From: Asanoa iriomotensis
GTDB taxonomy: Bacteria > Actinomycetota > Actinomycetes > Mycobacteriales > Micromonosporaceae
Length of the DNA stretch: 64,000 bases
Direction of reading: 5' to 3'
Assembly (NCBI RefSeq): GCF_016862515.1
Contig: NZ_BONC01000009.1
Location: 1 to 64,000 of the forward strand
Position numbers and translations under genes: made by a program. The notes beneath the pieces are model-generated. The model saw only the letters and a list, made by a program, of their open reading frames with translations. It ran no database searches and was not told where the DNA came from. This document shows positions 32,330-32,841 of the stretch, piece by piece. The stretch's first letter is position 1. Each line of letters starts with the position of its first letter.

Positions 32330-32343
32330 CGATGGAGGTGGCC

Positions 32344-32841
32344 GTGCGGAAGTTGGTCGTACTCGTGGGAGTCTTTGCCGCCTTGACGGCCTGCACGTCG
32401 GTTGGCGACGTTGGCCGATACAAGCGCTACCAGGTTCGCTCACCGGCGATGGAACCCACGATCCCGGAAGGGTCGACGGTCACCGCCACGAAGGTGAAGC
32501 CGGGCGAATACCGTCCGGATGCCGGTGACCTCGTCGTCTTCGACCCGCCGGACAGGCCGGGCTGGAACCCTGACGGACGTCCGCGGATCCTGCGCGTGGT
32601 GGCGGTGCCGGGCGACATGATCGCGTGCTGCGACCCACAGGGCCGGATCACGCTCAACGGGACCGCACAGGACGAGCCCTACGCCAGGGTGTCGGAGTTC
32701 GATCCGCCGAAGGCGTTCGAGGCCATCACCGTGCCGGTCGACGAACTCTTCCTCCTCGGCGACTCCCGTGGCATGGCCAACGACTCATCGTTCAACGGAA
32801 CGGTCCCGCTCACGACCGTCATCGGCGTGATCAAGACCTAG
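32344..32841 (+). CDS. Signal-peptidase-I-like lipoprotein lacking catalytic residues
   Basis: A 165-residue protein with the S26 (signal peptidase I) fold but placed on a lipoprotein signal: MRKLVVLVGVFAALTAC, with lipobox Cys17. The Ser box reads RSPAMEPTI, so the catalytic Ser is Ala35. The Lys box reads RILRVVAVPGD, so the catalytic Lys is Leu83. The later box FLLGDSRGMANDSS is conserved. The fold is therefore kept while the Ser/Lys dyad is lost, pointing to a non-catalytic binding or scaffolding role on the outer face of the membrane. GTG at 32344 is chosen because GGAGGT lies five bases upstream; an ATG at 32332 overlaps that site. Convergent with the next gene, no terminator seen. Confidence 0.85.
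   Translation: MRKLVVLVGVFAALTACTSVGDVGRYKRYQVRSPAMEPTIPEGSTVTATKVKPGEYRPDAGDLVVFDPPDRPGWNPDGRPRILRVVAVPGDMIACCDPQGRITLNGTAQDEPYARVSEFDPPKAFEAITVPVDELFLLGDSRGMANDSSFNGTVPLTTVIGVIKT

What the first reader, a model, noticed from the sequence alone, without database searches (positions are those of the whole stretch)
32344..32841. Lipoprotein with a signal-peptidase fold but no Ser/Lys dyad
Both catalytic residues are replaced (Ser to Ala35, Lys to Leu83), while the surrounding boxes and fold remain. It is anchored as a lipoprotein instead of by N-terminal helices. It may bind signal peptides or C-terminal tails without cutting them, an accessory or decoy role not usually described.
Basis: partly seen in the sequence, partly recalled or inferred. 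Interest (0 to 1): 0.55.

Follow-up and report, generated by a model that had tools for sequence, protein, structure and literature searches.

The report
Inactive lipid-anchored signal peptidase relative
This gene makes a membrane-tethered protein built like the enzyme that trims exported proteins but lacking its cutting residues; it is maintained by selection in a small, scattered group of bacteria and probably holds peptides rather than cutting them, as one streptococcal relative is thought to do.

Summary
Window 32344-32841 (+) encodes a 165-aa Peptidase_S26 protein (Pfam E 1.7e-23) with a lipobox (LTA-C17). Ser is Ala35 and Lys is Leu83, exactly as stated. A third catalytic-site residue, the LepB Ser278 equivalent, is also lost (Ala145). 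It belongs to a supported clade (96/90) of seven loci in six of 356 same-family genomes. In the six full-length members position 35 reads A/T/S/A/T/T, 83 reads L/L/S/F/Y/L and 145 is always Ala. Of 25 positions conserved in 27 dyad-bearing relatives this protein changes five; three are the catalytic ones. The substrate cleft stays hydrophobic. There is no His and no invariant Lys, so no replacement base. Codon-position divergence matches the active lipoprotein clade, so it is not simply decaying. No neighbour is conserved. Dead signal peptidases are not new (S. pyogenes SipA, S. aureus SpsA), and in 33 sampled family genomes 7 of 122 S26 ORFs lack both residues. The lipid anchor and triple loss make it a new variant. 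Best reading: a lipid-anchored pseudo-signal peptidase that binds peptides without cutting. Loss of catalysis is well supported; ligand and role are inferred. The single-sequence fold was uninformative.

The parts
32344..32841 (+). CDS of the pseudo-signal peptidase lipoprotein (165 aa, GTG start, TAG stop)
   Evidence: PF10502 E 1.7e-23; TIGR02227 E 1.6e-23; GC3 0.85
32334..32338 (+). GGAGG, likely ribosome-binding site, 5 nt before the GTG
   Evidence: read; inference
32344..32394 (+). lipoprotein signal peptide with lipobox L-T-A-C; C17 is the expected lipidated residue
   Evidence: sequence; lipobox-like Cys also seen in the other five full-length clade members; Lgt and LspA present in genome
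32446..32448 (+). codon of Ala35, at the position of the nucleophile Ser (LepB Ser90, SpsB Ser36)
32590..32592 (+). codon of Leu83, at the position of the general base Lys (LepB Lys145)
32776..32778 (+). codon of Ala145, at the position of LepB Ser278, which stabilises the catalytic Lys
   Evidence: alignments; role of Ser278 as stated in PMC4049620
31532..32329 (+). alpha/beta hydrolase gene ending 14 nt upstream; possibly co-transcribed here, arrangement not conserved in relatives
   Evidence: Abhydrolase_1 E 3.9e-26; no conserved neighbour

Best explanation
It is a catalytically dead, lipid-anchored relative of type I signal peptidase. It is exported, lipidated on C17 by the usual Lgt/LspA route, and held on the outer face of the cytoplasmic membrane, where signal peptidases work. 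Its shallow S1/S3 cleft is kept, so it most likely binds an extended peptide (a signal-peptide c-region, a C-terminal tail or a lipopeptide) and presents, shields or retains it without cutting, in the manner proposed for SipA. Shown by sequence: homology, loss of all three catalytic-site residues in a clade, retained cleft side chains, purifying selection. Inferred: lipidation, peptide binding, and any client.
For: S26 membership. A clade of seven loci with support 96/90 in a tree built without columns 35, 83 and 145. At 35 A/T/S/A/T/T, at 83 L/L/S/F/Y/L and at 145 A in 6 of 6 full-length members, against S/K/S in 27 of 27 dyad-bearing rows, which were picked for S and K. Of 25 columns conserved at 90% or more in those 27 rows, the window protein differs at five (29 F to Y, 35, 72, 83, 145), so the changes centre on the catalytic site (chance that all three are among the five: 10/2300 = 0.004, hand arithmetic). 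The SpsB P1/P3 pocket residues Tyr30, Ile32, Met37, Leu41, Val66 and Val76 (PMC4704075, passages) map to Y29, V31, M36, I40, V65 and I82, hydrophobic in 6 of 6. No His in the protein and no invariant Lys in the clade. Third-codon-position share of differences is 0.455 in this clade and 0.431 in the active lipoprotein clade; dN/dS 0.28-0.69. The genome keeps other S26 genes with an intact dyad (L001 pair, L003, L164), so bulk signal-peptide cleavage does not need it.
Against: No peptide binding was measured here, and direct binding tests with SipA failed (PMC4049620 discussion). No conserved neighbour or client. Patchy distribution: 6 of 356 family genomes. One of two G149 copies is broken. L010 keeps Ser35, though without Lys. 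No usable structure model.
Confidence: 0.55

Rival explanations
1. It modulates an active signal peptidase in the same membrane, by pairing with it or competing for the same signal peptides, rather than having a client of its own.
For: The genome carries a tandem pair of membrane-anchored S/K signal peptidases and an S/K lipoprotein paralogue (L001 pair and L003).
Against: Only 2 of the 6 clade genomes (G000, G326) also show the S/K lipoprotein paralogue at E 1e-34; no genetic linkage to a dyad-bearing signal peptidase gene.
Confidence: 0.15
2. It is a non-adaptive leftover: a duplicate that lost activity and is only slowly decaying.
For: Patchy distribution (6 of 356), no conserved neighbours, one broken copy in G149.
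Against: Open frames in all six full-length members at 51-80% identity, third-position excess like that of the active clade, 20 of 25 conserved positions kept with losses centred on the catalytic site.
Confidence: 0.15
3. It is a sink for lipopeptide inhibitors of signal peptidase (arylomycin type) made by actinomycetes, protecting the real enzyme.
For: The cleft is kept; in SipA the bound N-terminal peptide lies like arylomycin in LepB (PMC4049620); a membrane-tethered place would suit it.
Against: As recalled, arylomycin also contacts the catalytic Ser and Lys, which are missing here; a paper search for arylomycin with self-resistance and gene cluster found nothing; no such cluster was sought in these genomes.
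Confidence: 0.08
4. It is still a protease, using another serine (S33 or S148) or the Ser/Thr found at position 35 in some members.
For: S33 and S148 are invariant in the clade; position 35 is Ser or Thr in 4 of 6 members.
Against: No Lys or His base is available: no His in the protein, position 83 is L/L/S/F/Y/L, and A145 removes the residue that stabilises the Lys. S33 is at the LepB Ser88 position and S148 is common in dyad-bearing rows (21 of 27).
Confidence: 0.05

Closest known systems
Streptococcus pyogenes SipA (pilus-assembly signal peptidase-like protein)
   Same: S26 fold family, Ser and Lys both replaced (Asp48, Gly85), Ser278 equivalent replaced (Arg145), peptide cleft kept (PMC4049620: abstract, Results part 2 and Discussion part 1); weak profile match here (4n31 E 1.1e-5)
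   Different: SipA is encoded in a pilus/sortase operon and essential for it. The window gene stands alone, with no pilin or sortase beside it, has a lipobox, keeps the LepB Gly272 equivalent (G139), and has different replacements.
Staphylococcus aureus SpsA
   Same: a signal peptidase paralogue lacking two conserved catalytic residues beside an active enzyme (PMC12445088, passages)
   Different: described there as dispensable with no assigned role; its sequence and anchor were not examined here
S/K lipoprotein S26 paralogues of the same bacterial family (such as L003, L017, L018, L020, L024, L028)
   Same: lipobox, S26 boxes and CCD motif, about 35-41% identity; L003 is in the same genome
   Different: they keep Ser, Lys and the Ser278 equivalent
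Type I signal peptidase (LepB, SpsB)
   Same: boxes B to E and cleft residues
   Different: active Ser/Lys dyad; anchored by membrane helices

Membership tests
Peptidase family S26 (homology) | S26 domain over curated cut-off | tested here: met
   PF10502 83.9 bits against cut-off 22.9; TIGR02227 83.4 against 47
Type I signal peptidase (active enzyme) | catalytic Ser in box B | tested here: not met
   Ala35
Type I signal peptidase (active enzyme) | general base Lys (or His) in box D | tested here: not met
   Leu83; no His in the protein
Type I signal peptidase (active enzyme) | cleaves signal peptides | not testable with these tools
   needs an assay
Bacterial lipoprotein | short N-terminal signal with lipobox Cys, and Lgt/LspA in the cell | tested here: met
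   LTAC at 14-17; PF01252 and PF01790 hits in the genome
Bacterial lipoprotein | lipid actually attached to the Cys | not testable with these tools
   needs labelling or mass spectrometry
SipA-type pilus pseudo-signal peptidase | both dyad residues replaced with cleft kept | tested here: met
   PMC4049620
SipA-type pilus pseudo-signal peptidase | encoded with pilins and a sortase | tested here: not met
   none of the nine window neighbours scanned is a pilin or sortase; none of the genome's 10 sortase matches is on contig C9

The most novel reading that the evidence does not exclude
A lineage of lipid-anchored, peptidase-dead signal peptidase folds has become a surface peptide receptor that captures signal peptides, or signal-peptidase-blocking lipopeptides, at the membrane, and so regulates or protects secretion without proteolysis.
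Probability: 0.12. Interest if true: 0.7.

Novelty: new variant of a known kind. Interest (0 to 1): 0.38.

Why it matters
Pseudo-signal peptidases are known from few examples, and the one with a phenotype that I read about (SipA) has no proven ligand. A lipid-anchored clade with the catalytic site erased and the cleft kept, standing outside any pilus operon, is a second system for asking what a signal peptidase fold does once it cannot cut. The survey also suggests that dyad-less S26 proteins are common enough in these bacteria (7 of 122 ORFs lack both residues) that automatic naming as signal peptidase I will sometimes be wrong: the TIGR02227 equivalog model accepts this protein.

Tried and rejected
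Structure: a single-sequence AlphaFold2 job gave mean pLDDT 33.6, so no fold search was run.

Conserved gene neighbourhood: none at 10 kb either side for the clade. The hydrolase upstream here and one downstream in L011 share only 28% over 106 residues.

Viral contigs: no relative. Genome contigs: one stretch in Brevibacillus (L038), a short match at residues 127-160, taken as chance. Plasmids: 41 records, all under 60% identity; of the 12 listed, those with an annotated feature are called signal or leader peptidase.

Apparent Lys loss in L023, L027 and L035 in a pairwise view was an alignment artefact: all three have Lys in the full alignment.

Lipobox flags by regular expression in the survey: 12 of 122; seven judged false by eye because the Cys lies inside a transmembrane stretch.

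Full report
OBSERVATION. The finding's coordinates match a complete gene: GTG 32344, TAG ending 32841, 165 aa. It carries GGAGG five bases before the GTG and has GC3 0.85. Pfam Peptidase_S26 matches residues 22-163 at E 1.7e-23, TIGR02227 signal peptidase I at 1.6e-23. By single-sequence phmmer the best solved relative is 4me8 at 1.6e-5; a 13-sequence profile reaches 4nv4 at 4.2e-18, 4wvg at 8.1e-18 and E. coli 1b12 at 5.3e-11. In these alignments Ala35 sits at the nucleophile and Leu83 at the general base. A145 sits at LepB Ser278, described in PMC4049620 as stabilising Lys145. So all three catalytic-site residues are gone.

ANCHOR. The N terminus MRKLVVLVGVFAALTAC is a lipoprotein signal with lipobox L-T-A-C. 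The genome has LspA (PF01252, E 7.3e-35) and Lgt (PF01790, E 2.5e-64). Lipidation is inferred.

THE CLADE. Searches of 300 genomes of the same family, 160 of one genus, 67 of another and 6 of the window's own genus cover 356 distinct family genomes (handles G000-G355, counted from the calls; the number of candidates scored per genome was limited). Close relatives occur in six: G000, G224, G289, G149 (two copies), G326, G151. By genus that is 1 of 6, 4 of 160 and 1 of 67. A class-wide sample of 394 genomes added none outside the family; three hits from another family (L059-L061) fall outside the clade. In a tree of 42 S26 domains, built without columns 35, 83 and 145, the seven loci form one group (96/90; 96% of bootstrap trees). 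Nine near-identical active rows were dropped before that tree. Several end branches are long, and the order inside the clade is not resolved.

WHAT CHANGED AND WHAT DID NOT. In the six full-length members (window, L009, L010, L011, L012, L042) position 35 is A,T,S,A,T,T, position 83 is L,L,S,F,Y,L (same order) and position 145 is A in all. All 27 dyad-bearing rows have S, K and S; they were selected for S at 35 and K at 83, so only position 145 is an independent result. L010 retains Ser35 but has Ser83. The seventh locus, L054, is a fragment with a stop upstream; it has Y83 and A145. Of 25 positions conserved at 90% or more in the dyad-bearing rows, the window protein keeps 20 and changes F29Y, S35A, the Trp at column 72 (P here; a Trp stands two residues on, so this may be alignment), K83L and S145A. 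SpsB pocket residues Tyr30, Ile32, Met37, Leu41, Val66 and Val76 (PMC4704075, passages) correspond to Y29, V31, M36, I40, V65 and I82, hydrophobic in 6 of 6; Asp74 corresponds to P80. The protein has no His and the clade no invariant Lys, so neither a Ser/Lys nor a Ser/His mechanism seems open to it.

SELECTION. Pairwise dN/dS (NG86, mature part) is 0.28-0.69 over 15 pairs; the higher values (0.43 and up) all involve L011 or L012. The share of differences at third codon positions is 0.455 (832 of 1827 over 15 pairs), against 0.431 (1015 of 2356 over 21 pairs) in seven active lipoprotein relatives. Pairs are not independent, but the dead clade does not look less constrained than the active one.

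HOW UNUSUAL. In a sample of 33 family genomes, 122 S26 ORFs were recovered (one fetched place, L157, gave none). Ser and Lys are both present in 106; at least one is replaced in 13; both are replaced in 7; 3 could not be read. The seven are the window gene, a membrane-anchored V/L or V/V family (L124, L125, L127, L128, L129) and L126 (E/Y). L066, about 5 kb from L010's gene, is a further membrane-anchored case (A/F). True lipoproteins by eye: 5 of 122 (L003, L008, L027, L034, L073), of which L073 has Ala for Ser but keeps Lys. So dyad loss recurs, and the lipid-anchored triple loss is one instance. Read-outs for distant members depend on a profile alignment.

CONTEXT. No neighbour within about 10 kb is shared across the clade. 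The upstream alpha/beta hydrolase ends 14 nt before the GTG, but the arrangement is not repeated; the hydrolase downstream of L011 is only 28% identical over 106 residues. The genome has 10 sortase matches, none on this contig.

MECHANISM. The pattern (catalytic site erased, cleft and scaffold kept, selection like that of active relatives, lipid anchor expected on the outer membrane face) fits a protein that binds peptides without cutting. SipA is the working model: it lacks the dyad, keeps the cleft and is required for pilus assembly, yet its ligand binding could not be shown (PMC4049620: abstract, Results part 2, Discussion part 1). Which peptide is bound here is unknown. Alternatives are a partner of an active signal peptidase, a leftover gene, a sink for lipopeptide inhibitors, or (least likely) a protease with another mechanism.

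KNOWN OR NEW. Dead signal peptidases are in print (SipA; SpsA in PMC12445088, passages). Searches with lipoprotein, pseudoenzyme, pseudoprotease and S26 terms showed no report of a lipid-anchored one in the titles and abstract openings listed; the library omits most subscription journals. I rate it a new variant of a known kind.

Noticed in passing
L124, L125, L127, L128, L129: A second, membrane-anchored family of S26 proteins with Ser replaced by Val and Lys by Leu (or Val), in 5 of 33 sampled genomes.
   Followed up: partly
L066:15411-16466 (reading frame on the minus strand, numbered on the reverse complement) and L126: A third membrane-anchored dead S26 type: A/F in G289, some 5 kb or less from its lipoprotein pseudo-signal peptidase, and E/Y in G025.
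   Followed up: partly
L014 (same gene in L073), L016, L043, L059-L061: Other lipoprotein S26 genes missing only one dyad residue (Ala for Ser, or Ser/Ala for Lys), suggesting repeated loss in lipoprotein forms.
   Followed up: partly
L054 (G149 contig C83): A second, broken copy of the clade gene with a TAG in the frame and no N-terminal part.
   Followed up: no
window:26024-27829 (-): VanW-like protein with a PG_binding_4 domain.
   Followed up: no
window:32844-33953 (-): Convergent neighbour carrying DUF7710 (E 4.9e-28).
   Followed up: no
window:32626-32631 (residues 95-96): Adjacent cysteines Cys-Cys are invariant in all 27 dyad-bearing rows and in the dead clade; role not known to me.
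   Followed up: no
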